In this document: positions 9,431 through 27,832 of the stretch, one piece after another
How positions within the stretch are numbered: position 1 is the stretch's first letter
Layout: the number at the start of each line of letters is the position of its first letter
Made by a program: the position numbers and the translations under genes
NCBI RefSeq assembly: GCF_900009145.1
Contig: NZ_LN889801.1
Location: forward strand, 244,560 to 278,152
Direction: 5' to 3'
Source of the DNA: Planktothrix tepida PCC 9214
Lineage (GTDB): Bacteria > Cyanobacteriota > Cyanobacteriia > Cyanobacteriales > Microcoleaceae
DNA length: 33,593 nucleotides
Notes under the pieces: model-generated
The model's database searches: none
What the model was told of the DNA's origin: nothing
What the model saw: the letters and a program-made list of their open reading frames with translations, nothing else

Positions 9431-10507
9431 TTAATGCACTTCTCCCCGTAATGCTTCAGCATCAATGGGTTTGGTAATATAAATTCTGAATAAATTCCAT
9501 AACGTTGAACAGTTAGAGGGTAATTTTAATAAGAATTTAACCCATTTCGGTTTGTTGCTGGCATCAATTTTTTGGTTGTTGGCATTGTTCTCGGAACATT
9601 TTTCGAGGCGGCGGAAAAAGTCGGGATGTTCTGTATCTAAAACCTCTGGAAATGCTCTTAACGAAGTTTCATTGGTTTTGCGAACAACATGACGATTATA
9701 TTCCTTTGCATCTAATCCCAAGGTATCATAAAAGTCTGCCCGTTCATCAACCGTTAAGGTATGGGTAGCAAAGACCGTTAACAGGAAAAATCTAGCCCAT
9801 AATCTTCCTTGCCAACTTTGCCACATTTGCGGTTGAGAACGCAATAAAACCTTAAAGAAATCTCCATGTCGGTTTTCATCCTGACACCAACTTTCAAAAT
9901 AACGGAATAAGGGATAATATTGATGTTCGGGATGGGCTTCTAAATGGCGGAACACTGTAATATAACGCCAATATCCAATTTTTTCCGATAAATAAACCGC
10001 GTAAATAATCCACTCCGGTTTAAAGAAGGTATAAGTCCGGTGTTTGGTTAAATACCCTAAATCCAAAGATAAATTAAAATCCGACATGGCTTTATTAATA
10101 AATCCCGCATGACGCGCTTCATCTCTAGCCAATAAAGTAAAGGCTTCAGATAACAAGGGATTTCGAGTTTTGAGTTGACGAGATAACTCTTTAAATAATA
10201 AAAATCCAGAAAATTCCGAAGTACAAGACCGTTCTAAAAAGTCCACAAATGCCAAGCGTGTTCTCTCATCAATTTGTTCCCAACTTTGTTCAAATTCTTC
10301 ATCCCGAACAAAATGATGACGGTTATAGTCCGACCGTAACTCCTCTAAAACTGCTGAAAATTCCTCCTCATAGGCCGATAAGTCTAGGTTCGCCATCGCG
10401 TCAAAGTCTGTGGTGTAGAAGCGAGGCGTCAGCAATGTCTCTTGAACCGGATTTTTAATACCGGGGCGCAGTTCTTGAGTTCCGGGGTTTTGGACAGTAT
10501 TCACCAT
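9431..10507 (-). CDS. acsF: Mg-protoporphyrin IX monomethyl ester oxidative cyclase
   Basis: AcsF/ChlA forms the fifth (isocyclic) ring of chlorophyll using O2 and a diiron centre. The 358-residue protein shows paired ExxH iron-ligand motifs at Glu130-His133 (DEARHAGF) and Glu211-His214 (DENRHGDFF), with additional candidate ligand Glu98. Length and N- and C-terminal sequence match cyanobacterial AcsF. AAGGA nine bases upstream supports the start. It diverges from heme oxygenase and hemN. In Synechocystis the micro-oxic isoform (ChlA-II) is grouped with ho2 and hemN, so this copy may be the low-oxygen form, but that is inferred from context. An acsF paralogue elsewhere cannot be excluded. Confidence 0.95.
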   Translation of the reverse strand: MVNTVQNPGTQELRPGIKNPVQETLLTPRFYTTDFDAMANLDLSAYEEEFSAVLEELRSDYNRHHFVRDEEFEQSWEQIDERTRLAFVDFLERSCTSEFSGFLLFKELSRQLKTRNPLLSEAFTLLARDEARHAGFINKAMSDFNLSLDLGYLTKHRTYTFFKPEWIIYAVYLSEKIGYWRYITVFRHLEAHPEHQYYPLFRYFESWCQDENRHGDFFKVLLRSQPQMWQSWQGRLWARFFLLTVFATHTLTVDERADFYDTLGLDAKEYNRHVVRKTNETSLRAFPEVLDTEHPDFFRRLEKCSENNANNQKIDASNKPKWVKFLLKLPSNCSTLWNLFRIYITKPIDAEALRGEVH

Positions 10508-16228: not shown

Positions 16229-19114
16229 GTGTTGGAACATCCCCTATTACTTTTGGTTGATGGTCATTCGTTGGCATTTCGTTCCTATTTTGCCTTTGGG
16301 AAAAGTCGCCAAGGAGGGTTACGCACGTCAACGGGTATTCCGACCAGTGTTTGTTTTGGGTTTTTGAAGTCATTATTAGACGTTATGGCAAGTCAAAAGC
16401 CGGATTATTTAGCGATCGCTTTTGATTTAGGAGTTCCTACGTTTCGTCATGAAGCGGATGAAAATTACAAAGCGGATCGCTCTGAAACGCCTCAAGATTT
16501 TATTGAAGATGTGCAGAATTTACAAGCGTTATTACAAGCGTTTGATTTAAGCATTGTTACGGCTCCGGGTTATGAAGCGGATGATGTTTTAGGAACCTTA
16601 GCCAACCGGGGAAGCCGGGAAGGATATCGAGTTAAAGTTTTATCGGGAGATCAGGATTTATTTCAATTAATTGATCTTGAAAAACAGATTAGTATTTTAC
16701 ATTTAGAACCGGGCAAAGGTAGTGTTCCTACAGAGTTTTTAGCTCAACAAGTTTATGATAAATTACAGATTTATCCTCATCAGGTGATTGATTATAAGGC
16801 ATTATGTGGCGATAAATCCGATAATATTCCAGGGGTGAAAGGCATTGGGAAAACTACGGCTGTTAAATTATTAGGAGAATATGGTTCCTTAGAAAATATC
16901 TATGCTCATCTTGAGGATATTAAAGGCGCAACTCGCCAAAAATTAGAGGAAGGAAAAGCCGATGCGGATCATTCTCAAACCTTAGCGCGAATTATTCAGG
17001 ATGTACCTTTAGAGGTTGGTTTAGAAAATTTTAAATTACAAGGGTTTGATGTCGCTAAAATTCAACCTATTTTAGAGAAATTAGCCTTTCAAACATTTTT
17101 AGGAAAAATCAATCAAATTCAACAGCAATTTAAAGGAATAATTCAAACAGAAGTTACAGAAAATCCGGTTACTGTTGGGGACGATATCGATTTTTGGACA
17201 CCGGAAGAAACCACAGCTTACCAAGAGCAAAAACGGTTAAATAGTCCTGTGTCTAACATTAAAGTGCGTTTAATTCAAACTTCAGACGCTTTAGAAGAGT
17301 TAGTTGATATTTTAAAACAGCATACTGATGTTAACTATCCCGTTGCTTGGGATACGGAAACCACCTCTTTAGAATTCCTAAAAGCGGAATTAGTTGGAAT
17401 AGGATGTTGTTGGGGAACAGAAGCAACCGATGTGGCTTATATTCCGTTAAATCATACTCAAGGAACAAATTTAGATAAAGTCCAAACGTTAGATCTTTTA
17501 CGTCCGATTTTAGAAAGTGATCGCTATCCTAAAACGTTTCAAAATGCTAAATATGATCGGTCAATTTTTAGATCTCAGGGCATTAATTTACAAGGTGTTG
17601 TCTTTGATCCAATGTTAGCCGATTATATTTTAAACCCGGAAGCTAATCATAATTTAATTGATTTAAGTCTCAGACATTTAGGATCTGAATTAATCGCTCC
17701 TAGTTATGATGAATTAGTTCCTAAAGGGAAAACTATTGCAGATATTAATATTAATCAAGTCGCTGAATATTGCGGAATGCAGGTTTATGTCACTTTTCAA
17801 TTAGTAGAAAGCATCAAAGCCAAATTGATAGATAAGCCTCATCTGATGAAACTTCTAACCGATGTTGAACAACCTTTAGAAGTTGTTTTAGCCGATATGG
17901 AATATTGGGGAGTAAATCTCGATATTGAATATTTGCAAACTTTGGCAGAGCAACTCGATAAACAGTTAGAAATTATTGAAAATCAAGCTTATGAACTAGC
18001 TGGAGAAAAATTTAATTTAGGTTCTCCTAAACAACTTAGCCAACTGTTATTTGAAAAATTAGAATTAAATACCAAAAAAACGCGCCAAACAAAAACAGGC
18101 TATTCAACGGATGTCAATGTTTTAGAAAAATTACAAGGAGATCATCCTATTATTGATGTTATATTAGAATATCGAACTTTAGCGAAACTGAAGTCAACTT
18201 ATGTGGATGCGTTACCCACAATGGTTGATGCTAAACAACGCATTCATACCAGTTTTAACCAAACCGTTACCGCAACAGGACGGTTATCTTCTTCTAATCC
18301 TAATTTACAGAATATTCCGATTAAAACTGAATTTTCTCGAAAAATTAGAAAAGCCTTTACAACGGAACCCAACTGGTTATTAGTATCAGCCGACTATTCC
18401 CAAATTGAACTCAGAATTTTAGCTCATTTAAGTCAAGAACCTATTTTATTAGACGCTTATCAAAATAATCAAGATGTTCATACCGTGACCGCTAAATTAT
18501 TATTTGAAAAAGACACCGTAACATCCGATGAACGACGGTTAGGGAAAACCATTAATTTTGGTGTAATCTATGGAATGGGAGCCCAACGATTTGCACGGGA
18601 AGCAAAGGTGAGTAGTGCAGAAGGTAAGCAATTTATTGAACGATTTAACCAACGCTATTCCCAGGTTTTTGCTTATTTAGAAACGGTTAAAAGACAAGCA
18701 ATTGCTCAAGGGTATGTCGAAACTATATTAGCAAGAAGACGGTATTTTGATTTTCAAGGAAGCAGCTTAAACAATTTAAAAGGAGTTGATATTAATTCCA
18801 TTGATTTAAGCCAATTAGGAAAAAAAATGGGTCAAAATGATGCCCAACTATTAAGAGCCGCTGCTAACGCTCCTATTCAAGGTTCCAGTGCTGATATTAT
18901 TAAAATGGCAATGGTACAAGTGCATCAACTATTAACTCAATATCAATCTCGATTAGTATTACAAGTTCATGATGAATTAGTCTTTGAAATTCCTGAGACG
19001 GAATGGGAAGAACTTCAACCCAAAATTAAAACTATTATGGAACAAGTGCTTCCTTTAAGTGTTCCTTTAGTTGTAGATATTCACGCTGGACAAAATTGGA
19101 TGGAAGCGAAATAA
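16229..19114 (+). CDS. polA: DNA polymerase I
   Basis: PolA fills gaps and removes Okazaki primers. The 961-residue protein has an N-terminal 5' nuclease (about 1-300) with VDGHSLAFRSY, EADD at 116-119, SGDQD and GDKSDNIPGVKGIGK. The 3'-5' exonuclease-like domain (about 340-530) keeps motif I (Asp375, Glu377) and motif II (Asn439, Asp443), but motif III YxxxD reads Tyr514-Cys-Gly-Met-Gln518. The polymerase domain carries motif A with Asp722, the O-helix (Arg769, Lys773, Phe777, Tyr781) and motif C with His914-Asp915. The start is GTG at 16229, chosen as the only upstream initiator fitting the family; a weak GGA lies about nine bases away. Confidence 0.95.
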   Translation: MLEHPLLLLVDGHSLAFRSYFAFGKSRQGGLRTSTGIPTSVCFGFLKSLLDVMASQKPDYLAIAFDLGVPTFRHEADENYKADRSETPQDFIEDVQNLQALLQAFDLSIVTAPGYEADDVLGTLANRGSREGYRVKVLSGDQDLFQLIDLEKQISILHLEPGKGSVPTEFLAQQVYDKLQIYPHQVIDYKALCGDKSDNIPGVKGIGKTTAVKLLGEYGSLENIYAHLEDIKGATRQKLEEGKADADHSQTLARIIQDVPLEVGLENFKLQGFDVAKIQPILEKLAFQTFLGKINQIQQQFKGIIQTEVTENPVTVGDDIDFWTPEETTAYQEQKRLNSPVSNIKVRLIQTSDALEELVDILKQHTDVNYPVAWDTETTSLEFLKAELVGIGCCWGTEATDVAYIPLNHTQGTNLDKVQTLDLLRPILESDRYPKTFQNAKYDRSIFRSQGINLQGVVFDPMLADYILNPEANHNLIDLSLRHLGSELIAPSYDELVPKGKTIADININQVAEYCGMQVYVTFQLVESIKAKLIDKPHLMKLLTDVEQPLEVVLADMEYWGVNLDIEYLQTLAEQLDKQLEIIENQAYELAGEKFNLGSPKQLSQLLFEKLELNTKKTRQTKTGYSTDVNVLEKLQGDHPIIDVILEYRTLAKLKSTYVDALPTMVDAKQRIHTSFNQTVTATGRLSSSNPNLQNIPIKTEFSRKIRKAFTTEPNWLLVSADYSQIELRILAHLSQEPILLDAYQNNQDVHTVTAKLLFEKDTVTSDERRLGKTINFGVIYGMGAQRFAREAKVSSAEGKQFIERFNQRYSQVFAYLETVKRQAIAQGYVETILARRRYFDFQGSSLNNLKGVDINSIDLSQLGKKMGQNDAQLLRAAANAPIQGSSADIIKMAMVQVHQLLTQYQSRLVLQVHDELVFEIPETEWEELQPKIKTIMEQVLPLSVPLVVDIHAGQNWMEAK

Positions 19115-19138
19115 TGATTTTCTATAAAGCAGCCTAGA

Positions 19139-20680
19139 TCAAGTAGATTTTGTATTAATTATTCGAGATCTATAGCTATCAAAAAGTTCATCAATTTTTT
19201 GGGGGTCAGATACAAGTGTTCCCCGTTCATCTCGAAAGGTGCGATCGCGATCGCCCTTAAAAGAAAGCCAATTAAAACTTGTTGTAACAGCAAATTTTCC
19301 ATCAGATATGAGGATTTTTGCGTGGGTATCTCCAAGACGTTTAAGGATAAAATTACCTTGGTACTGATTTGCTAATTTTTCAAGATTTTTCTCAGCTTGA
19401 ATATCAGATTTTGAATTTTTATCATCGTTTTCTCCTAAACCGTACCCAATCAAAACTTGTACTCCCCGTTTGAGAAGATTTTCAAACTGTTGAATAAACT
19501 TTTTATCCACAGAACTTGCTCGAATCCAAGGAGAGATAATCATTAAACGTTTTTGACTCTCTTTAAGTGCTTGTTCGAGGATAGGACGGTGTTCGTACAT
19601 TTCTAGCCATCGCATCGGAACTGAAGCTAGAATAGAATCAAGTTGAGCTTGAAGTTCTTTTATTTGCTGTTGTGCTTCTTGAAGCTTTTGATCAAGAATG
19701 AGTTTTTCCTGATCATCTTCAGTTTGTTCAAGAGTATTTTGAGTTGTTTGTATTTTTTCTTCTATTTGAGCTTGAGCAGCAAAAACTTTTTCCTTAATCG
19801 CTTCAATTTCTTGTAAAGGAGCTTGAGCAACAAATTCATATCCTAAAACTGCTTCAGCTAACTTTCGGGGTGCGCTCTCTTTTAGGTTTTCTAATATCTG
19901 AAGTTTTTTGATTCCATTAGTACGATCAAAAATTTCTTCATGATCATTAGAAATAACATCATCAATCGCAAAAGATACCTGAATATTATCACTATCTTTT
20001 GCCTTATAAATCAGCATCAAAGCGGGTTGAAAAAATATCGACCTGCGCTCAATAGCTTTCAAGGCTAAAAGGTCTCGCTCTTGCTTAACTCTGGCTTTGC
20101 TGGCTCCGTCAATCTGGCGAATAATTTTGTCTACATCTTTGAGTTTAAGATCGGAAATTTCTGGTGACTTTTTTGGAAAGGGATCAATTTCTATAATGTC
20201 TTGATTACGCAAGTCTTTTTGCTTAAGTAAACGTGACTCTAACTTTCCGTACCAACGAGGATACCGTAAAAGTCCATCAAAATTGATATCAAATGTTCGC
20301 TCTTCTGGAACAATAATTTTAGCCTCGCGGAGTGTTCCTTCACCTTTTTTCGTCAACTTCCAAACCTGTATCTGAGAGCCATCAGGAGCTATGAGGTCTA
20401 TATCCTCACTCATCCTTAAATTGATCATTGCATCCCTGACAATAGGCAATTCAATGCCAAGAAATCCAGCAATATCCGTTTCAGAGGATAAACCAGCATT
20501 AATCGATTTCAAGACATATTCTTCTATTGGTGGAATTGGTTTATGCAGTTGAGTTAGAGCTTGAACAGTAATTTTATAAACAGGTAAACCGACTTGTTTA
20601 CAACTCACTAAATCGAAGCCTGTACGATTATTGTAGCGACGCAGTTCTTCTGGAGAAAAATCGAGATTTTCTAACTTCAT
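19139..20680 (-). CDS. PLD-family nuclease, MkoB-like (type I Mokosh)
   Basis: The 513-residue protein begins with a winged-helix-like region (about 50-115: a YVLKSINAG helix, a DIAGFLGI turn, then DAMINLRM and a WKLTKKGEG wing). A mixed middle region follows, then a long coiled coil (about 285-350, Gln/Glu-rich) and a C-terminal PLD domain (about 365-505). The single HxKxxxxD motif is His453, Lys455, Asp460, with Asn470 in the following SFNW turn; one motif per chain implies a dimeric active site. It is the last gene of a four-gene minus-strand run, 10 bp after mazF, and converges on polA. With the kinase-helicase upstream it matches the PLD partner of Mokosh. DNA or RNA cleavage is inferred. 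Confidence 0.8.
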   Translation of the reverse strand: MKLENLDFSPEELRRYNNRTGFDLVSCKQVGLPVYKITVQALTQLHKPIPPIEEYVLKSINAGLSSETDIAGFLGIELPIVRDAMINLRMSEDIDLIAPDGSQIQVWKLTKKGEGTLREAKIIVPEERTFDINFDGLLRYPRWYGKLESRLLKQKDLRNQDIIEIDPFPKKSPEISDLKLKDVDKIIRQIDGASKARVKQERDLLALKAIERRSIFFQPALMLIYKAKDSDNIQVSFAIDDVISNDHEEIFDRTNGIKKLQILENLKESAPRKLAEAVLGYEFVAQAPLQEIEAIKEKVFAAQAQIEEKIQTTQNTLEQTEDDQEKLILDQKLQEAQQQIKELQAQLDSILASVPMRWLEMYEHRPILEQALKESQKRLMIISPWIRASSVDKKFIQQFENLLKRGVQVLIGYGLGENDDKNSKSDIQAEKNLEKLANQYQGNFILKRLGDTHAKILISDGKFAVTTSFNWLSFKGDRDRTFRDERGTLVSDPQKIDELFDSYRSRIINTKST

Positions 20681-20690
20681 ATTTATTTAA

Positions 20691-21053
20691 CTAAATCTCT
20701 ATTTCGGGTAATAGGTTCATTAATTTAGCAACTACTTCAATTAGGACTTCTGGAGGCATTTTACAAGCAAACTCTGCTTGCCTTGCTTGCCAATCAAAGG
20801 ATTTAATTTGATCGGCTAAAACAACTCCTGATACTGCCAATCCTTCTGGAATTGCTACTTCAAAAGGATAACCTTTTACTCGGCTAGTAATTGGACAGAC
20901 TAAAGCTAGTCCAACTCGGCGATTATATGTTGTTTTTGAGATAACAATAGCTGGACGACGACCTGCCTGTTCCCTCCCTAATTGCGGAATAAAGTCAATC
21001 CAAATGATATCACCTTGACGGGGAATATACAACTGAGGATTATCAGAATTCAT
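20691..21053 (-). CDS. mazF: MazF-type mRNA interferase toxin
   Basis: MazF cuts mRNA at short sequence motifs. This 120-residue protein fits the PemK/MazF fold throughout: GDIIWIDFIPQLGREQAGRRPAIVIS at 14-39, CPITSRVKGYPFEV at 53-66, VLADQIKSFDW, and a C-terminal LMNLLP helix. Conserved positions align with E. coli MazF Glu24, Arg29 and Thr48 as Glu28, Arg33 and Thr56. It follows its antitoxin by only six bases and has no visible ribosome site, so translational coupling is likely. It precedes the PLD gene by 10 bp. Both pairs of neighbours therefore look co-transcribed. Coupling to the defence function is inference; a selfish addiction module is the alternative. Confidence 0.93.
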   Translation of the reverse strand: MNSDNPQLYIPRQGDIIWIDFIPQLGREQAGRRPAIVISKTTYNRRVGLALVCPITSRVKGYPFEVAIPEGLAVSGVVLADQIKSFDWQARQAEFACKMPPEVLIEVVAKLMNLLPEIEI

Positions 21054-21059
21054 ATATTA

Positions 21060-21269
21060 TTATAACCCAATTTCACTATGAATGCTATCAGGTTTGATTG
21101 CTTCTAATAATTGCTTCAATTGACTCTCTCTTTGAATTAAACAAGGTAATTTAGCAGCAATAATTTCAATTGCTAAATATTCTATTGATTCTTCTTTTAT
21201 TTCGGCTAGCAAAGAGAGTTGCTCAAAAAGCGTTTCCGAAATTTCTAATGTTATTTTGTGGTCTTTCAT
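21060..21269 (-). CDS. MazE-like antitoxin
   Basis: This 69-residue protein lies immediately before mazF, where its antitoxin is expected. The N-terminus (KITLEISETLFEQLSLLAEIKEESIEYLAIEIIAAKL) has one beta strand and two helices, a ribbon-helix-helix-like DNA-binding arrangement found in many cyanobacterial MazE-type antitoxins. The C-terminal 25 residues are charged and would bind and block MazF. Position, size and polarity support the call; sequence similarity to E. coli MazE is weak. AGGTG lies just before the ATG. An 82-bp gap separates it from the kinase-helicase gene, leaving room for a private autoregulated promoter. Confidence 0.8.
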   Translation of the reverse strand: MKDHKITLEISETLFEQLSLLAEIKEESIEYLAIEIIAAKLPCLIQRESQLKQLLEAIKPDSIHSEIGL

Positions 21270-21351
21270 TGAACACCTGCTTATTTCGTAATCTACCAGT
21301 TGTAAAATGAGTAATATACAGACTATTTACCCGATAAAGGCTATACAGGAA

Positions 21352-24300
21352 TTATAACCCAGGCTCAGTTAAATCGCAATTTTCACGGTGACATTCAATA
21401 TACTCTAAAACTCGGTGTAATGGATTCTCCTGTGAAGTTCGACAGAAATGGTGATCTCCCACAATTACTAAACCCACTTTACCTCTGGATAAAGCCACAT
21501 TTAATCGTTCTGCATCACGCAGAAAACCCACTTTACCTTGTTTGTTAGAACGAGTTACAGAATACACGGCAATATCAGCTTCACGTCCTTGGAACGCATC
21601 TACTGTATTACACTCAACTGTTAATGCTTGCCAATTGTTTAATTCTGAATTAAGCCTACGATTAAGTAATTTTAGCTGTGCTGCATACCCGGTTAAAACA
21701 GCCACACTATATTTTTTTTCAGCTTTTACTGCTGTCTGATTTAGCTGTTTGAGAAACTCAACAATGACGTTTACTTCACAGGGATTGTTAAAGCTAGAAT
21801 TTACAGACTGTTCATGAGAATTTTTAAGTTTACTTGTTGTTAACCAAGTAACGGTTTTTGGTAATATTTTAGCCAGGTCTTTATCGATATCTGTCCTGGC
21901 ACTTTTGAGTTGACCTTCATAAAAGCATTCACTAACTAAATTGCCAATTGGTGCAACCATCCGATGTTGAATCGTTAACATCTTGCGACACCCATCTGGG
22001 AGTGTTCTAAGCAGTCGATCAAATAGAGTTTCTCGAATATCATCTTGAGTCAGTTCGTATTCGTCTAAAAAGTCAGAATTTCTGCTAACTTCATCTTTAA
22101 AGGGTGGCAGTTGTTTAGGGTCACCAACCAATATCCAGCGATGAGATCGCGCCATTGGGACTAATACTTCTGTCGCCGTAGCTTTTGAAGCTTCATCAAC
22201 AATACACAGGTCAAATTCTATGTCTTGAATCTCTCTAGGAATTCCGATACAAGTCCCAGCTATTACTTGCGATCGCTTAATTAAAGGTATATTGAATTTG
22301 TCATTTCGACCAAACTGCTCAAACCATTCTGTTTGAATTTTTAGCAAGTTTTGTAGCATTTTTGAATCTGAATTATTTTGATCAATGAGTTGATTAATCT
22401 GTTCTTGTATCTCCTCAACCGATAATCTCAAAAGTTGATTGATACTACTTCTAGTTAATTCTTTTAACCGCTTGGCTTTTTCTTTCTGTTGCTGTCGCGC
22501 TTCTTTTAACTGCTGACGTAGAATGTTAATTTCCACTTCAATACTTTGACATTCCTCTAGCTTATCTTTGGGAATATGAGTTTCTAACAATGAATCTGGA
22601 TTTTCTATGTCGTAATTTATTGCTAGAATTTCATCTAAATCCTGTTTCCAGGCATTAACTTCTTCCCTGAAAGTTTCAATTTTTATTCCCAGATTTCTCA
22701 TTTCTTGAAATAGTGTGGCTATTTCACTGTTATGCCCAGAAATACCTCGTTGTGCTGACCAATTATCAATAAATTCCTGTCCTTTAGCGATCGCCGACTC
22801 TCTCCATTGTTCCATTTGTTCTTCCAGTAACAGAGAATGAACATTTTCTGATACCCTTTCATGGTTGCCAATTCGCAACAATTTCAAGTTAGGATCTTTC
22901 ACTTTAATTCGTTCTAATGCGTTATCTAGTGCAACATGAGTTTGTGAACTCAGCAAAATTCTAGTCTCAGGTTTTTGATTAAGAATTTGCAGAACAACTT
23001 CTGTAATAAATGTTGTTTTTCCTGTCCCTGGTGGCCCTTGAACAATTAGAAAATCTTCTGTAGAAAGTGCAGCTTTGACAACTTGTTCCTGTGATTCATT
23101 CAGAGATTGAATAAACTGCACATCCACTTCTAAATCAGGAATACGAACTTCTTGGGGATTGACAAGTAATTGGCGAATATCTGAACGGACTCCCCTATCA
23201 AATCTAATTGCATCTAGGGCATTTTTTTGTCGATTTAGGGAAACCTCAGCAGCACGAGTATCAAAACGTAATTCTCCAGATTGTGGGAGTCTTTCTGATT
23301 CTCCATATTTAATATAAAGAGTCAATTTGTCACCGATAACTTGCTCAACATCTCCCTCCAAGATGATCGATTCTTTGGCATTTTTCACATAGCGTGGTTG
23401 TCCACCTAGATCATCTTCTGGAAGTTCTGATAATTCAAAGGTAACGCGATTTCCATGATGAGTAAAGTCTTTGTATTTAATCGGTTTCTCTCTATTTTTT
23501 TCCCAATCACCCTTCGCTCTAAGAATATCCCACCAAACTTGAAATATTCGTTGCTTTTCTTTCTCATCTTCCTGTTCTTTTAAGTTATCTTCATGCTCTA
23601 TAACTGCATCCTCTAAATCCCGAATTACATCTTCTGCTTCATATAAATTCCGTGGCTTTCCAAATCTGAACTCGTAGGGAAGAATCCAAGAACGTTCTCG
23701 ACGTTGTTCTAATTGCCAGTAAGAAGTAGACCAAGCATTCAAAATAACTAGGTGCTGTCGTTGGTTTTGATCTATCTTTATATGATATCGATAGGAAATA
23801 CCATAAATTTCGTAGTGATCTTCACGGGACGCAGCATCGTTGGTGTCGTCCTTAAATTTAAAGGGACGAATGCCACAACCAGATTCATTATTGATATCTT
23901 CAAGGATAAGATTCTTGATCTCAACTTCTGAAGAAATCTTCAATTCATTCCTAAGTCGTTCTAAGCACCTTGGTGTAAGCTCAATAAAGCAAGGACGTTT
24001 TTTAATTTCTCCTGTTTTTGTCTTTCTTTGAATAGCATTAATTTCAGCTAACAATACATCTGCATTATGCTGACGCTCTGCGGGGTCTAAGGAAACAGCA
24101 CGCTCGATTACTTCTACGATTTCAGAGGGTGCATTAAACGCTTTTAGAGCGGTGGAAATATTATTATGTTCTGTTAGTTCAATATTAGTTAAACACTTCA
24201 AAACCAATACACCAAAACTGAAAACATCGCGGGTGTAAGTATAGGAACCATCATCAAATTCTGGCGGCGTGAATGTACGCGATACAAAGTCTTTGAGTGT

Positions 24301-24804
24301 AATATTGGGTTCCAAATATCTTTTAAGCTTAGATATGCCAAAGTCAGCAAGTTTGAGTTTACCGTCAATTCCTACTAAAATATTGCTAGGTTTAATATCC
24401 CGGTGTATAATTCCGCGATTATGGGAAAATGCTAAAGCTTCCAATGTGGGTAAGGCTATTGCTTTCCAGAATGAATCCCAATCTTCCGGGGGAGATTCTT
24501 TTAAAAGTGTTGTTAAATCTTTCTCCATCCACTCCAGAACCAGAAAATAATTCCCCGTAGTTTCATCCTTTCCAGAATCAAGGAGTTCCACAATTCTAGG
24601 GTGTTTTAACTCTTGGAGAGCTAGGGTTTCACGTCTGAAGGATTCGGCTAGAAAATCTGCTTCAATTTGTCCATTTTTGAATTCTTTTACCGCAACTAGC
24701 CGTTCTTCTTGGTTGTAGTCTCTTGCGCGGTAGACATCTGCCATTCCACCTGATCGTGGGTTGGGGGATAGAGCATAGCGATCGTTGATGAAGCGAGGTG
24801 GCAT
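21352..24804 (-). CDS. Ser/Thr kinase-SF1 helicase fusion, MkoA-like (type I Mokosh)
   Basis: The 1150-residue protein starts with a Hanks-type kinase (about 8-262): VAVK with Lys40, catalytic loop HRDIKPSN (Asp136, Asn141), DFG at 154-156 and PPEF at 180-183, all intact. Residues about 270-450 are an unassigned region. From about 565 it is an SF1 helicase of the COG1112/AAA_11-AAA_12 kind: Walker A GPPGTGKTT 590-598, Walker B Asp870-Glu871, GDPKQLPP 894-901, QHRM 946-949, FQGREAD 1071-1077 and LNVALSRGK 1101-1109. A coiled-coil insertion lies at about 660-830. No membrane helix is seen. Kinase plus helicase with a PLD partner is the type I Mokosh layout. ATG at 24804 opens the operon. Confidence 0.88.
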   Translation of the reverse strand: MPPRFINDRYALSPNPRSGGMADVYRARDYNQEERLVAVKEFKNGQIEADFLAESFRRETLALQELKHPRIVELLDSGKDETTGNYFLVLEWMEKDLTTLLKESPPEDWDSFWKAIALPTLEALAFSHNRGIIHRDIKPSNILVGIDGKLKLADFGISKLKRYLEPNITLKDFVSRTFTPPEFDDGSYTYTRDVFSFGVLVLKCLTNIELTEHNNISTALKAFNAPSEIVEVIERAVSLDPAERQHNADVLLAEINAIQRKTKTGEIKKRPCFIELTPRCLERLRNELKISSEVEIKNLILEDINNESGCGIRPFKFKDDTNDAASREDHYEIYGISYRYHIKIDQNQRQHLVILNAWSTSYWQLEQRRERSWILPYEFRFGKPRNLYEAEDVIRDLEDAVIEHEDNLKEQEDEKEKQRIFQVWWDILRAKGDWEKNREKPIKYKDFTHHGNRVTFELSELPEDDLGGQPRYVKNAKESIILEGDVEQVIGDKLTLYIKYGESERLPQSGELRFDTRAAEVSLNRQKNALDAIRFDRGVRSDIRQLLVNPQEVRIPDLEVDVQFIQSLNESQEQVVKAALSTEDFLIVQGPPGTGKTTFITEVVLQILNQKPETRILLSSQTHVALDNALERIKVKDPNLKLLRIGNHERVSENVHSLLLEEQMEQWRESAIAKGQEFIDNWSAQRGISGHNSEIATLFQEMRNLGIKIETFREEVNAWKQDLDEILAINYDIENPDSLLETHIPKDKLEECQSIEVEINILRQQLKEARQQQKEKAKRLKELTRSSINQLLRLSVEEIQEQINQLIDQNNSDSKMLQNLLKIQTEWFEQFGRNDKFNIPLIKRSQVIAGTCIGIPREIQDIEFDLCIVDEASKATATEVLVPMARSHRWILVGDPKQLPPFKDEVSRNSDFLDEYELTQDDIRETLFDRLLRTLPDGCRKMLTIQHRMVAPIGNLVSECFYEGQLKSARTDIDKDLAKILPKTVTWLTTSKLKNSHEQSVNSSFNNPCEVNVIVEFLKQLNQTAVKAEKKYSVAVLTGYAAQLKLLNRRLNSELNNWQALTVECNTVDAFQGREADIAVYSVTRSNKQGKVGFLRDAERLNVALSRGKVGLVIVGDHHFCRTSQENPLHRVLEYIECHRENCDLTEPGL

Positions 24805-24948
24805 AACTTAGCTATCAATAGAAGACATTTGTTTATTTATAACACAAATTACATTTTTAAGTCATCAAGCCTTTCTACTGTTAATCATCCGAAATCCTCA
24901 AGGATGCGGTGGTAGATTTAGAGTAATCCCTGAATCAATCAGTTGAAA

Positions 24949-25338
24949 ATGAAACGATCTCAAAAACCTTGGCAAATTGCTTGTTTTCTCTATTTTTTGT
25001 TGTTATTATTAATTGTAATTACAGCAGATCTAGGAAATTTACCCTATAGTTTATTAGAACAAATTCCCTATTATGATGTCTATGGACACTTTATTTTATA
25101 TGGAATTGCCTCTTTTTTAACTCATTTAGCCTGGGGAGGAAAAAAGATTATCATTTATCCCCTATTTTTTCCCCTAGGGCCATTTGTTTTTGCCCTAGTC
25201 ACTATCGCAGAAGAAATGATGCAAACTCTTTTTCCCAGTCGTACCTTTAGTTTACTCGATTTAAGCTCAAGTTTAATTGGGATTATTCTATTTTATTATT
25301 TAGCAGAATTATGGATTTTTTATCATAAAAAAAACTGA
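24949..25338 (+). CDS. VanZ-like membrane protein
   Basis: This 129-residue protein has about four hydrophobic helices. The GHFILYGIASFLTHLAW segment and the later EEMMQTLFPSRTFSLLDLSSSLIGI segment (acidic pair, then Arg and DL..S..G) are the recognisable VanZ-family pattern. In Gram-positives VanZ confers low-level teicoplanin tolerance; in cyanobacteria its role is unknown. The ATG at 24949 is preferred over a TTG two codons earlier. It is divergent from the kinase-helicase gene and separated by about 140 bp that should carry both promoters. It probably sits outside the defence operon, although a shared regulatory gap means this is not certain. Confidence 0.8.
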   Translation: MKRSQKPWQIACFLYFLLLLLIVITADLGNLPYSLLEQIPYYDVYGHFILYGIASFLTHLAWGGKKIIIYPLFFPLGPFVFALVTIAEEMMQTLFPSRTFSLLDLSSSLIGIILFYYLAELWIFYHKKN

Positions 25339-25364
25339 GGGAATAAAATTACCCTTGCTTATTT

Positions 25365-25412
25365 AACTCAATTATGAGAAAATTCAAAACATCCCAAACG
25401 GGGAATTGAGTT
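25365..25412. terminator. Long hairpin between the VanZ-like and GH116 genes
   Basis: Perfect 9-bp arms AACTCAATT (25365-25373) and AATTGAGTT (25404-25412) enclose a 30-nt loop holding a CCC/GGG mini-stem. TTTTGTT follows on the plus strand. It starts 27 bp after one stop and ends 29 bp before the next ATG, so it may terminate or attenuate. Confidence 0.5.
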
Positions 25413-25441
25413 TTGTTAAAATAGCATAATCCCTTAACCGC

Positions 25442-27832
25442 ATGACCCATTCTAGCCCTATTAACAATATTCCTGAGTCTACTTGGAGTCGTCCCATTGG
25501 TTTAGGGTGGGAAAAACCTTATACCGTTCGCTACGCCAGTAATTTAGATGATGGCCCTTGGCACGGAATGCCGTTAGGGGGGTTGGGTGCAGGTTGCATT
25601 GGACGGTCTTCACGGGGAGATTTTAACCTTTGGCATTTGGACGGGGGAGAACATATTTTTAGAAATCTTCCCGCTTGTCAATTTAGTATTTTTGAAGAAA
25701 TCAACGGTCAAAAAAAAGCTTACGCTTTATCAACAGAACCGCCAGAAGATGGGAGTTTAGCGGCGTGGAATTGGTATCCTAATCCTAAAAATTATCCTGA
25801 ACAAACAGGAACCTATCATGCGTTATATCCTCGCAGTTGGTTTGTTTATGAAAATGTATTTTCAGCACAATTAACTTGTGAACAATTTTCTCCAGTTTGG
25901 GCAAAAAATTATCAAGAAAGTAGTTATCCTATTGCAATTTTTGAATGGATAGCTCACAACCCAACGGATGAACCGATTACCTTAAGTATATTATTAACGT
26001 GGGAAAATACGATTGGATGGTTTACCAATAGTTTAGCGAGTCCTGAAGTCAAAGTCAGAGATGATGGCAGTCCGGTTTATGAATATCAACCCCGATGGGG
26101 AAATAGTGCCGGAAGTGTTAATCGATTAGTTGAAGATTTTCATCGTATTGGCTGTTTAATGACTCGTCTAAGTACCCATGAAGAGGTGCGGGAAGGGGAA
26201 GGACAAATGGCAATTGCCACCATTATAAATCCTGCGGTTGAAGTGTATTATCAAACCCGTTGGAACCCGACTGGAACTGGACAAGATATTTGGGAATATT
26301 TTGCTGAAGATGGCACATTATTAGATCAAGAAAGTGAACATCCGGCCAAAGAAGATGAACGACTTGCAGTTGCTTTAGCAGTTAAATTTACAATTCGACC
26401 GGGAAAAACTCGCAAAATTCCATTTTATTTAGCCTGGGATTTACCTATTACTGAATTTGCATCAGGAATTAATTATTATCGTCGTTATACTGATTTTTTT
26501 GGTCGGAATGGTCACAATGCTTGGTCAATGATTCGCACAGCGATGAAGCATTCTGATACTTGGCGAGAACAGATTGAACTGTGGCAAAACCCAATTTTAC
26601 AACGTCAAGATTTACCCAATTGGTTTAAAATGGCACTCTTTAATGAGCTATATTTACTCACGGATGGAGGTGCACTTTGGACTGCGGCAGATGAACGTGA
26701 TCCAGTCGGTCAATTTGCCGTTTTAGAATGTTTAGATTATCGCTGGTATGAAAGTTTAGATGTGCGATTATATGGGTCATTTTCTTTATTAATGTTATGG
26801 CCAGAGTTAGAAAAATCAATATTAATCGCCTATTCCCGTGCGATTTCTCAAGGCGATAATACTCCGCGAATTATTGGTTATAATCAAGCCTCTGCGATTC
26901 GGAAAGCTGTCGGTGCAACCCCCCATGATTTAGGAGCACCGAATGAACATCCTTGGGAAAAAACCAATTACACCAGTTATCAAGATTGTAACCTCTGGAA
27001 GGATTTACCTTGTGATTTTATTTTGCAAGTTTATCGAGATTTTCGATTAACGGGGGGAACAGATTACGAGTTCTTAAAAGATTGTTGGTCAGCAATGGTT
27101 GAAACCCTCAATTATCTGAAAACCTTTGATTTAGATCAAGATTCAATTCCTGAAAATAGTGGCGCACCCGACCAAACCTTTGATGATTGGAGATTACAGG
27201 GAATTAGTGCCTATTGCGGGGGGTTATGGTTAGCGGCATTAGAGGCAATGATTGCGATGGGTAAGGTATTAGAAAAGGAAACTGTTACCCCGTCTCCTCA
27301 AAGCGTTCTTCCGACCTATCAAACTTGGTTAGAAACGGCTAAACCTTTGTATCAAAAAACCCTTTGGAATGGTCAATATTATCGTTTGGATAGTGGTAGT
27401 GGTTCTGATGTAGTCATGGCGGATCAATTATGTGGTCAATTTTATGCTAGATTATTAGAATTACCTGATATTGTTCCTACTGATTGTACAATTTCGGCTT
27501 TAAAAACCGTTTATGATTCCTGCTTTAAAAAGTTTCATAATGGACAATTTGGTGCAGCTAATGGTGTTAGACCGAGTGGAGAAGCGGTTAATCCTCAAGA
27601 TACTCACCCCTTAGAAGTTTGGACAGGAATTAATTTTGGGTTGGCGGCGTTTTTCATGCAAATGGGAATGAAAGCGGAAGCGTTAGAATTAACGGAAGTT
27701 GTGGTTAAACAAATCTATGAAAATGGTCTACAATTTCGGACTTCCGAAGCCATTACAGCCGTTGGCACATTTCGCGCCAGTCATTATTTAAGAGCGATGG
27801 CAATTTGGGCAATTTATTATCAATACTTGTAA
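25442..27832 (+). CDS. GH116 glycosidase (glucosylceramidase/GBA2-like)
   Basis: The 796-residue protein has the two-domain layout of glycoside hydrolase family 116. An N-terminal beta-rich domain (about 1-330) includes MPLGGLGAGCIGR near 43-55. A C-terminal (alpha/alpha)6 domain (about 385-796) follows. The candidate nucleophile is Glu429 in VLECLDYRWYESLDVRLYGS, aligned from memory with GBA2 Glu527. The acid/base Asp lies in APDQTFDDW (about 575-583), followed by ISAYCGGLWLAAL. Family members hydrolyse beta-glucosides including glucosylceramide. No signal peptide is seen, so it should be cytosolic; the natural substrate in cyanobacteria is unclear. Downstream is an MsbA-like exporter, possibly co-transcribed. 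Confidence 0.88.
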   Translation: MTHSSPINNIPESTWSRPIGLGWEKPYTVRYASNLDDGPWHGMPLGGLGAGCIGRSSRGDFNLWHLDGGEHIFRNLPACQFSIFEEINGQKKAYALSTEPPEDGSLAAWNWYPNPKNYPEQTGTYHALYPRSWFVYENVFSAQLTCEQFSPVWAKNYQESSYPIAIFEWIAHNPTDEPITLSILLTWENTIGWFTNSLASPEVKVRDDGSPVYEYQPRWGNSAGSVNRLVEDFHRIGCLMTRLSTHEEVREGEGQMAIATIINPAVEVYYQTRWNPTGTGQDIWEYFAEDGTLLDQESEHPAKEDERLAVALAVKFTIRPGKTRKIPFYLAWDLPITEFASGINYYRRYTDFFGRNGHNAWSMIRTAMKHSDTWREQIELWQNPILQRQDLPNWFKMALFNELYLLTDGGALWTAADERDPVGQFAVLECLDYRWYESLDVRLYGSFSLLMLWPELEKSILIAYSRAISQGDNTPRIIGYNQASAIRKAVGATPHDLGAPNEHPWEKTNYTSYQDCNLWKDLPCDFILQVYRDFRLTGGTDYEFLKDCWSAMVETLNYLKTFDLDQDSIPENSGAPDQTFDDWRLQGISAYCGGLWLAALEAMIAMGKVLEKETVTPSPQSVLPTYQTWLETAKPLYQKTLWNGQYYRLDSGSGSDVVMADQLCGQFYARLLELPDIVPTDCTISALKTVYDSCFKKFHNGQFGAANGVRPSGEAVNPQDTHPLEVWTGINFGLAAFFMQMGMKAEALELTEVVVKQIYENGLQFRTSEAITAVGTFRASHYLRAMAIWAIYYQYL

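What the first reader, a model, noticed from the sequence alone, without database searches (positions are those of the whole stretch)
19139..24804. Type I Mokosh-like defence operon with a MazEF pair nested between its two genes
The kinase-SF1 helicase fusion (21352-24804) and the single-HKD PLD protein (19139-20680) have the domain make-up reported for type I Mokosh (MkoA: kinase plus COG1112-like helicase; MkoB: PLD). Between them, on the same strand with gaps of 82, 6 and 10 bp, sit an antitoxin and MazF. Spacing suggests that mazF and the PLD gene are translated from one message. MazF could act as a second effector or guard if the defence is disabled. A selfish module that inserted by chance is the alternative.
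Basis: partly seen in the sequence, partly recalled or inferred. Interest (0 to 1): 0.85.

Follow-up and report, generated by a model that had tools for sequence, protein, structure and literature searches.

The report
MazF toxin pair inside Mokosh operon
A cyanobacterial anti-phage gene pair (type I Mokosh) carries a toxin-antitoxin pair wedged between its two genes, and in sister species the defence genes have been deleted right up to the edges of the toxin pair while the pair itself survives, as expected of an addictive passenger rather than a working part of the defence.

Summary
The two large proteins are type I Mokosh MkoA and MkoB (PADLOC 1.1e-270 and 1.7e-89). A MazF and a 69-aa protein, probably a ribbon-helix-helix-like antitoxin, lie between them. 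The nested order is rare. Of 25 cyanobacterial loci with a readable mkoA/mkoB junction, 2 have the pair inside (this genome and one congener), 3 have it just after mkoB, and 20 show neither gene, mostly with mkoA and mkoB overlapping by 1-4 nt. None of 24 plasmid pairs has room for it.

Two congeners (G008, G009) keep open antitoxin and mazF genes but no match to mkoA or mkoB; only stubs of 4-66 nt remain beside the cassette. A third, G005, keeps only an antitoxin fragment. In G002 an ISL3-type element interrupts mkoB. So the pair outlives Mokosh and does not need it. A second genus (g190) has the closest antitoxins, also beside Mokosh, and in one genome an mkoB stub follows mazF.

Verdict: type I Mokosh carrying an addictive MazEF-type passenger. 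A second-effector or guard role is not supported.

The parts
21352..24804 (-). mkoA: Ser/Thr kinase fused to SF1 (IGHMBP2-like) helicase, 1150 aa
   Evidence: PADLOC MkoA PDLC03920 E 1.1e-270 over residues 4-1145; PF00069, PF13086, PF13087; IGHMBP2 family helicase TIGR00376 1e-80, below its cut-off
21351..21379 (-). promoter-like site (TTGCGA-17-TATAAT) overlapping the mkoA stop codon; probable own promoter of the cassette
   Evidence: 10 of 12 consensus positions, but the region has no more such sites than shuffles (15 vs 17.3); TTATAAT kept in 4 of 4 congeners aligned, also in G009 where mkoA is gone; the -35 part is not kept in G009
21060..21269 (-). probable antitoxin, 69 aa, RHH-like N-terminus, MazE-like C-terminus (both weak)
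   Evidence: no Pfam/NCBIfam hit of its own; profile and family-member hits to RHH_7/CopG, ParD and a MazE C-terminus, all weak; MazF hit in 19 of 30 loci fetched with it
20691..21053 (-). mazF: mRNA interferase toxin family, 120 aa
   Evidence: NCBIfam MazF equivalog NF007386 125.9 bits, cut-off 120; PF02452; solved MazF 7d28 E 1.7e-35
19139..20680 (-). mkoB: single-HKD PLD-family protein, 513 aa
   Evidence: PADLOC MkoB PDLC03922 E 1.7e-89 (weaker matches to MkoC 2.5e-20 and DrmC 4.1e-9); PF13091; HxK(x4)D at 453-460 invariant in the 9 aligned sequences
16229..19114 (+). polA (DNA polymerase I), chromosomal left neighbour
   Evidence: NF004397, 1063.7 bits; polA found in 9 of 10 genus genomes
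24943..25338 (+). VanZ-like protein, right neighbour, followed by GH116 at 25442-27832
   Evidence: NF037970 weak, below cut-off; PF04685/PF12215 for GH116; VanZ and GH116 hits in L024, L045, L047-L050

Best explanation
This is a type I Mokosh operon into which a self-contained MazEF-type toxin-antitoxin cassette (about 670 bp) has come to lie exactly at the mkoA/mkoB junction. MkoA (kinase-helicase) and MkoB (PLD protein) are the defence. The cassette probably has its own promoter over the mkoA stop codon and needs neither mko gene. It persists by addiction: cells that lose the antitoxin gene are poisoned by residual MazF, so deletions that take the cassette are purged while deletions of the mko genes are tolerated. 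Because mkoB lies 10 bp behind mazF with no terminator-like site between, it is probably also transcribed from the cassette promoter, so the nested order decouples mkoB from mkoA. Shown: the genes, their families, the rarity of the order in the loci surveyed, deletions up to the cassette edges, survival of the pair without Mokosh, and a second genus with the same antitoxin clade beside Mokosh. Inferred: addiction, the promoter, read-through into mkoB, and the anti-phage activity itself.
For: Family assignment. Normal Mokosh has no cassette: 20 of 25 genome junctions show neither gene, with overlapping or near-touching mko genes, and 24 of 24 plasmid pairs have no room. In the nearest relatives the genes overlap as TTATGA at the point where the cassette sits here. 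In the genus, full MkoA is found in 2 of 10 genomes, and a close mazF (93-100%) in 4 of 10. With all candidates scored, none of the 8 other genomes has the helicase part of MkoA, and only G007 has a weak PLD match (2.1e-7, residues 359-503). In G008 and G009 the cassette region aligns at window 20615-21402 and 20677-21364, so only 66 and 4 nt of mkoB and 51 and 13 nt of mkoA remain beside it. On the mkoB side each genome keeps mkoB bases that the other lacks (G009 keeps 45 nt of the 3' end), so those two deletions are separate. G005 shares the G008 mkoB junction and has then lost mazF. G002 has mkoB interrupted at codon 251 by sequence whose copy in G000 (L211) leads into an ISL3 transposase. 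mazF and antitoxin stay open in G000, G002, G008 and G009, with pairwise dN/dS 0.12-0.52. mazF is less diverged between species than its neighbours: dS 0.07 against 0.57 for polA and 0.67 for GH116, G000-G009, while the g190 mazF has dS 0.77, so synonymous constraint alone does not explain it. The same TA family stands alone near other genes, including transposases, elsewhere.
Against: No killing or addiction experiment exists. G001, sister of G009 (polA dS 0.10), has no cassette, and G005 has lost mazF and about half of the antitoxin, so the cassette can be lost. G000 and G002 each have a second, 49% identical MazF elsewhere, and G005 a 42% one, which could cushion or complicate addiction. 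The mazF similarity implies recombination between species, so the deletion histories may not be strictly vertical. On the mkoA side the two deletions could be nested in one another. The promoter call is not statistically special. The recurrence of the same antitoxin clade beside Mokosh in g190 is more than a random passenger predicts.
Confidence: 0.68

Rival explanations
1. MazF is a second effector or a guard of Mokosh: when a phage disables or overwhelms MkoA/MkoB, the antitoxin is lost and MazF shuts the cell down.
For: Nested, same strand, tight spacing. The closest antitoxin clade, in a second genus, is also beside Mokosh, in one genome with an mkoB stub directly after mazF. Antitoxin and mazF are open where Mokosh is intact.
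Against: 20 of 25 genome junctions and 24 of 24 plasmid pairs have no cassette. G008 and G009 keep open mazEF with no match to mkoA or mkoB, and G002 keeps it with a broken mkoB, so MazF is not held back by Mokosh and does not need it. In g190, mko genes, mazF or the antitoxin are themselves decaying.
Confidence: 0.12
2. Regulatory rewiring: the cassette matters because its autoregulated promoter now drives mkoB, so that antitoxin loss during infection raises the PLD effector.
For: mkoB starts 10 bp behind mazF with no terminator-like site between on that strand; TATAAT conserved in 4 of 4 congeners aligned; the overlap of mkoA and mkoB usual in relatives is broken.
Against: Promoter score is not above shuffles. 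No operator palindrome met the criteria of a simple scan. G002, with the same wiring, has a broken mkoB. Autoregulation is recalled from other TA systems, not tested.
Confidence: 0.12
3. Neutral insertion: the cassette landed there and is simply too small to have been deleted yet; no addiction.
For: Short target (about 0.67 kb). G001, G003, G006 and G007 have none at this site; G005 retains only a fragment.
Against: All four inner deletion edges in G008 and G009 lie within 66 nt outside the cassette, none inside it; both genes remain open with dN/dS below 1 in all six pairs each.
Confidence: 0.08

Closest known systems
Mokosh type I (Millman et al. 2022, recalled; MkoA/MkoB of PADLOC-DB)
   Same: Kinase-helicase MkoA and PLD MkoB in one operon; full-length MkoA model match
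   Different: A toxin-antitoxin cassette lies between the genes; the 4-bp overlap usual in relatives is lost; mkoB may also have a second promoter
Oscillatoria nigro-viridis PCC 7112 pOSC7112.01 and Allocoleopsis franciscana pMIC7113.01 Mokosh (NC_019763, NC_019739)
   Same: Closest plasmid relatives: MkoB 75.6 and 78.0% identity, MkoA residues 300-1150 82.3 and 75.5%
   Different: No cassette; mkoA and mkoB overlap by 4 bp; on plasmids typed as conjugative rather than beside polA
Stand-alone MazF with related small antitoxins in other cyanobacteria (e.g. L061, L077, L080)
   Same: Same antitoxin family and MazF in the same order
   Different: Neighbours scanned are metabolic genes or a transposase, not Mokosh
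Toxin-antitoxin modules as stabilisers of chromosomal islets and mobile elements (review PMC12548467, passages read)
   Same: The review notes chromosomal islets that lost other mobile-element genes and retained only the TA system
   Different: Here the lost neighbours are a defence operon, and intact, IS-broken and deleted states can be seen in one genus
CreTA, TA linked to CRISPR-Cas (PMC9458426, search listing and start of abstract only)
   Same: A toxin-antitoxin genetically linked to a defence system
   Different: CreT is repressed by Cascade itself; here open mazF persists where Mokosh is absent

Membership tests
Mokosh type I | MkoA: whole-length match to the kinase-helicase MkoA model | tested here: met
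   PDLC03920 E 1.1e-270, residues 4-1145 to model 5-1107 of 1112
Mokosh type I | MkoB: separate PLD protein matching the MkoB model | tested here: met
   PDLC03922 E 1.7e-89, two stretches, the best 25-443 to model 3-386 of 610; PF13091 one domain
Mokosh type I | mkoA and mkoB in one operon, same strand, mkoA first | tested here: met
   Same strand and order, but 671 nt apart because of the cassette
Mokosh type I | NERD domain listed for Mokosh type I in a review table (PMC10952713, passage read) | tested here: inconclusive
   PF08378 not among the best 25 of 33 Pfam families shown for MkoA; the kinase-type MkoA model matches over its whole length without it
Mokosh type I | Anti-phage activity | not testable with these tools
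   No experiment
MazF toxin | Score above the curated MazF equivalog cut-off | tested here: met
   NF007386 125.9 bits against 120; PDB MazF 7d28 E 1.7e-35, residues 9-115
MazF toxin | RNA cleavage and growth arrest, neutralised by the antitoxin | not testable with these tools
   No experiment
MazE (AbrB-type antitoxin) | AbrB/MazE family match | tested here: not met
   No Pfam or NCBIfam hit; weak hits are to RHH/CopG and ParD, and a 22-residue C-terminal match to a MazE at E 0.14. Filed as 'MazE-like antitoxin of MazF', not as MazE family
Guard module held off by a defence system (CreTA-like) | Toxin kept off by the defence system itself | tested here: not met
   Open mazF and antitoxin in G008 and G009 with no match to mkoA or mkoB in those genomes

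The most novel reading that the evidence does not exclude
One particular MazF-antitoxin clade is a repeated partner of type I Mokosh. It joined two separate Mokosh lineages at the mkoB start, and its autoregulated promoter makes expression of the PLD effector depend on antitoxin stability, so that a phage that shuts down the host raises both MazF and MkoB. The pair would then be both addiction device and trigger.
Probability: 0.14. Interest if true: 0.75.

Novelty: new variant of a known kind. Interest (0 to 1): 0.5.

Why it matters
It gives a natural series within one genus (intact operon, IS-broken mkoB, mko deleted with the TA kept, TA fragment, no trace) that shows what can happen to a defence operon when a toxin-antitoxin pair sits inside it. 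It bears on an open question: do TA pairs next to defence systems take part in defence, or do they hold a place in the genome? It also warns that a MazF found inside a defence operon should not be counted as an effector on position alone.

Tried and rejected
The tool chose only two kinase motifs as patterns. None of the 80 loci kept has a hit to the helicase part of MkoA, to MkoB, to the antitoxin or to MazF at 1e-5, so no survey outside cyanobacteria beyond plasmids was made. A viral-contig scan with MkoB (alignment A2) found no relative among 118 pattern matches. A single-sequence fold of the antitoxin (pLDDT 82.9, pTM 0.54, all helical) neither proves nor excludes an RHH fold; I did not search it against structures. 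I looked for repeats bounding the cassette (none of 12 nt or more in 20650-21420; by eye an 11-mer TGGGTTATAAT occurs at the ends of both mkoA and the antitoxin gene) and for an operator palindrome (none met the simple criteria). No Rfam family reaches its threshold in 19000-25500. Considered and dropped: that mazEF came first and Mokosh was built round it. The mkoB and mkoA stubs beside mazEF in G008 and G009, and the cassette-free overlap in relatives, argue against that. Considered and dropped: that the low mazF dS reflects synonymous constraint; the g190 mazF has dS 0.77.

Rows left out of the 25-junction count: of the 37 loci, L188 (no MkoA hit), L194 (mkoB 5' part missing), L209 (same place as L207), and nine more distant loci (L195-L202, L208). 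Of those nine, six have MkoA and MkoB hits close together and three have no MkoA hit with this query; none has an antitoxin or MazF hit. L171 was misread by my script, which picked another kinase, so I used its annotation (4-bp overlap). L169 and L172 were in that call too but are counted with the plasmids. Some start codons are ambiguous; I took the nearest plausible one. What lies after mkoB was seen only as far as the fetched stretch went (L193 ends inside mkoB). The 24 plasmid pairs are those in both listings shown (all 27 MkoB records; 60 of 194 MkoA records). Gaps between alignment ends are 11-212 nt, and 625 in one record where 203 residues of MkoB are unaligned.

Whole-genome searches scored only 12 and 3 candidates per genome; searches repeated the 8 congeners with all candidates scored. 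One search had no positive genome in it; the full-length query rings in G000 and G002.
Full report
WHAT IS THERE. The four minus-strand ORFs are as described, with gaps of 82, 6 and 10 bp. PADLOC assigns 21352-24804 to MkoA over its whole length (1.1e-270) and 19139-20680 to MkoB (1.7e-89). Pfam gives kinase plus AAA_11/AAA_12 helicase for the first and one PLD domain for the second. 20691-21053 passes the MazF equivalog cut-off (125.9 bits, cut-off 120) and aligns over residues 9-115 to a solved MazF (7d28, 1.7e-35). The 69-aa protein has no Pfam or NCBIfam hit of its own at the limits used (0.1, 0.01) and a chance-level PADLOC hit (Csn2, 0.0021). A 12-member alignment gives only weak leads: RHH_7/CopG 9e-4 and ParD 0.008 in some members; in PDB, HP0222 0.027, ParD 0.52 and the C-terminus of a MazE 0.14. 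It is best called an RHH-like antitoxin of MazF. The operon lies between polA and a VanZ-like gene plus GH116, ordinary chromosomal genes. Of ten other window proteins scanned with PADLOC, one matched at 1e-10 (a weak viperin hit, 3.7e-11), so I see no sign of a defence island in the window.

HOW COMMON IS THE NESTED ORDER. With a MkoB profile, 30 of 388 order genomes and 11 of 388 class genomes match at 1e-40 (the sets overlap and include the window's genome). The PADLOC MkoA model matches 10 of 386 phylum genomes at 1e-100. Of 25 genome loci with a readable junction, 2 have antitoxin and MazF between mkoA and mkoB (G000, G002), 3 have them just after mkoB (G485, G517, G527, one genus, g190) and 20 have no hit to either. 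In the 20, the gap runs from -17 to +74 nt, and is -4 or -1 in most. Six cyanobacterial plasmids carry related Mokosh pairs with an overlap of 4 bp (four plasmids) or a gap of 21 bp (two) and nothing between. In 24 plasmid records with both genes, none has room for the cassette. Two of the genome loci (G442, G594) appear to be the Allocoleopsis and Oscillatoria plasmids again. At the nearest relatives' junction (..CCTAACTTATGAG..) the cassette sits flush in the overlap.

THE GENUS SERIES. Full MkoA is found in 2 of 10 genomes of the genus, polA in 9 of 10. G000: intact. G002: mkoB stops matching at codon 251 and continues into sequence that has two more partial matches in G002 and two copies in G000, of which the one examined (L211) leads into an ISL3 transposase (PF01610 3.9e-53); the 3' end of its mkoB is on another contig. 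G008 and G009: open antitoxin and mazF between polA and the VanZ gene; no match to the helicase part of MkoA and none to MkoB in either genome at 0.001. The window aligns to them only at 20615-21402 (G008) and 20677-21364 (G009) between polA and the right flank, so the stubs left next to the cassette are 66 and 4 nt of mkoB and 51 and 13 nt of mkoA, plus 45 nt of the mkoB 3' end in G009 (edges are BLAST alignment ends). On the mkoB side each keeps bases the other lacks, so those deletions are separate; on the mkoA side one could be nested in the other. G005: the same mkoB-polA junction as G008, but only an antitoxin fragment is left. G003 and G006: polA-VanZ with no trace seen. G001: also lacks the VanZ gene. 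G007: other DNA with transposase-like ORFs at the site, and a weak PLD match elsewhere (2.1e-7). G004 (73% complete) could not be read at this site. The unrooted tree from polA and GH116 groups (G000,G002) with (G008,G005), then (G009,G001), against (G006,(G007,G003)), all nodes 0.995 or more (G005 has polA only).

SELECTION AND EXCHANGE. In the four genomes with open mazF and antitoxin, pairwise dN/dS is 0.21-0.52 for mazF and 0.12-0.48 for the antitoxin (120 and 69 codons, so rough). mazF is far less diverged between species than its neighbours: dS 0.04, 0.17 and 0.07 for G000 against G002, G008 and G009, where polA gives 0.29, 0.46 and 0.57. The antitoxin shows this less (0.08, 0.25, 0.32). 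The g190 mazF has dS 0.77 to G000, so I read the low values as recent recombination of this segment between species. This means the deletion history need not be strictly vertical. G000 and G002 also carry a second MazF, 49% identical, elsewhere.

A SECOND GENUS. The antitoxin family occurs in 32 of 291 order genomes; 30 loci were fetched and 19 of them have a MazF hit. The genus of the window and g190 form sister antitoxin clades (support 0.975, 27 sequences). Among the 30 loci only those of G000, G002 and the three g190 genomes have Mokosh hits within the fetched flanks. The MazF tree joins the two groups with only 0.36 support. In g190 the order is mkoA, mkoB, antitoxin, mazF. In G485, directly after mazF, there is a stub that matches the start of its own mkoB with the leader (88 of 118 positions). 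So antitoxin-mazF-mkoB once existed there too (inference). MkoA and MkoB trees place the two Mokosh lineages apart. One TA clade therefore joined two Mokosh lineages, or a cassette moved between them by recombination. The g190 loci are decaying: frameshifted mkoA in G485 and G527, an interrupted mkoB reading frame in G485, truncated mazF in G517 and G527, a stop in the G517 antitoxin. Of ten neighbour ORFs at eight stand-alone loci, Pfam found aldehyde dehydrogenase, CN-hydrolase, PfkB, two transposases, a TPR protein, a TerB-dynamin fusion and a DUF4340 protein, and nothing in two; PADLOC matched two of the ten, the TerB-dynamin (LeoA 3.6e-23) and the TPR protein.

HOW IT MOST LIKELY WORKS. 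Mokosh: a helicase-kinase that recognises foreign nucleic acid with a PLD nuclease partner. This is general knowledge; one paper states that Mokosh degrades viral transcripts (PMC11291487, passages read); nothing was tested here. Cassette: antitoxin and MazF from a promoter whose -10 (TATAAT) overlaps the mkoA stop codon and is kept in four of four congeners aligned, also where mkoA is gone. The site is not exceptional by score. No terminator-like site lies between mazF and mkoB on that strand, so mkoB is probably read from this promoter too. Addiction explains why inner deletion edges stop at the cassette and why both genes stay open when their neighbours are lost. A guard whose toxin is held down by Mokosh is contradicted by G008 and G009. 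A guard that senses inhibition of Mokosh is not excluded, but nothing found here supports it.

LITERATURE. Full-text searches for Mokosh with mazF returned two reviews (search listing only). Mokosh with toxin-antitoxin and cyanobacteria returned none. A five-of-six-term search for TA embedded in a defence operon returned none. The library is open-licence PubMed Central only, so absence there is weak. [quoted passage not shown]

LIMITS. The host family is inferred only from G594, whose mkoB place (49793-51301) nearly equals the annotated gene of the Oscillatoria nigro-viridis PCC 7112 plasmid (49790-51301) and which is listed as same family. No survey of other phyla beyond plasmids. No experiment.

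Noticed in passing
L024:8086-8282 (G002) and L211: End of an ISL3-type insertion sequence interrupting mkoB in the sister species; two copies of that end in the window's own genome at 92-94%, one of them examined.
   Followed up: partly
L162:10193-10330 (G485): About 118 bp stub of a second mkoB start, with leader, directly behind mazF.
   Followed up: partly
L164:11704-11782, and L163/L164 about 10780 onward: Group II intron (Rfam RF00029) beside the g190 locus in L164; the sequence it may belong to appears to interrupt, in L163 and L164, a stretch that is continuous in G485.
   Followed up: partly
L163 and L164, about 9900-10300: Short tandem repeats (unit like TGTGGCATGTGAAGCATGACC) directly behind a truncated mazF.
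   Followed up: no
L045:1791-2802 (G008): Two ORFs without Pfam match at 0.01 where mkoA used to be.
   Followed up: partly
window:13603-14961 (-): P-loop NTPase with weak KAP/STAND-type matches, function unknown.
   Followed up: no
L165:7053-10029: Stand-alone antitoxin-MazF next to a TerB-dynamin fusion gene (PADLOC LeoA and LeoBC matches 3.6e-23 and 4.5e-16).
   Followed up: no
window:20691-21053 against L045/L050: mazF is several times less diverged at synonymous sites between congeners than polA and GH116, suggesting recent exchange of this short segment between species.
   Followed up: partly
G000:C56:76688-77008 and G002:C28:12952-13278: A second MazF, 49% identical to the nested one, elsewhere in the two genomes with Mokosh.
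   Followed up: no
window:2808-3818 (-): Weak match to prokaryotic viperin models (3.7e-11) in an ORF outside the Mokosh locus; probably a radical-SAM enzyme (inference).
   Followed up: no
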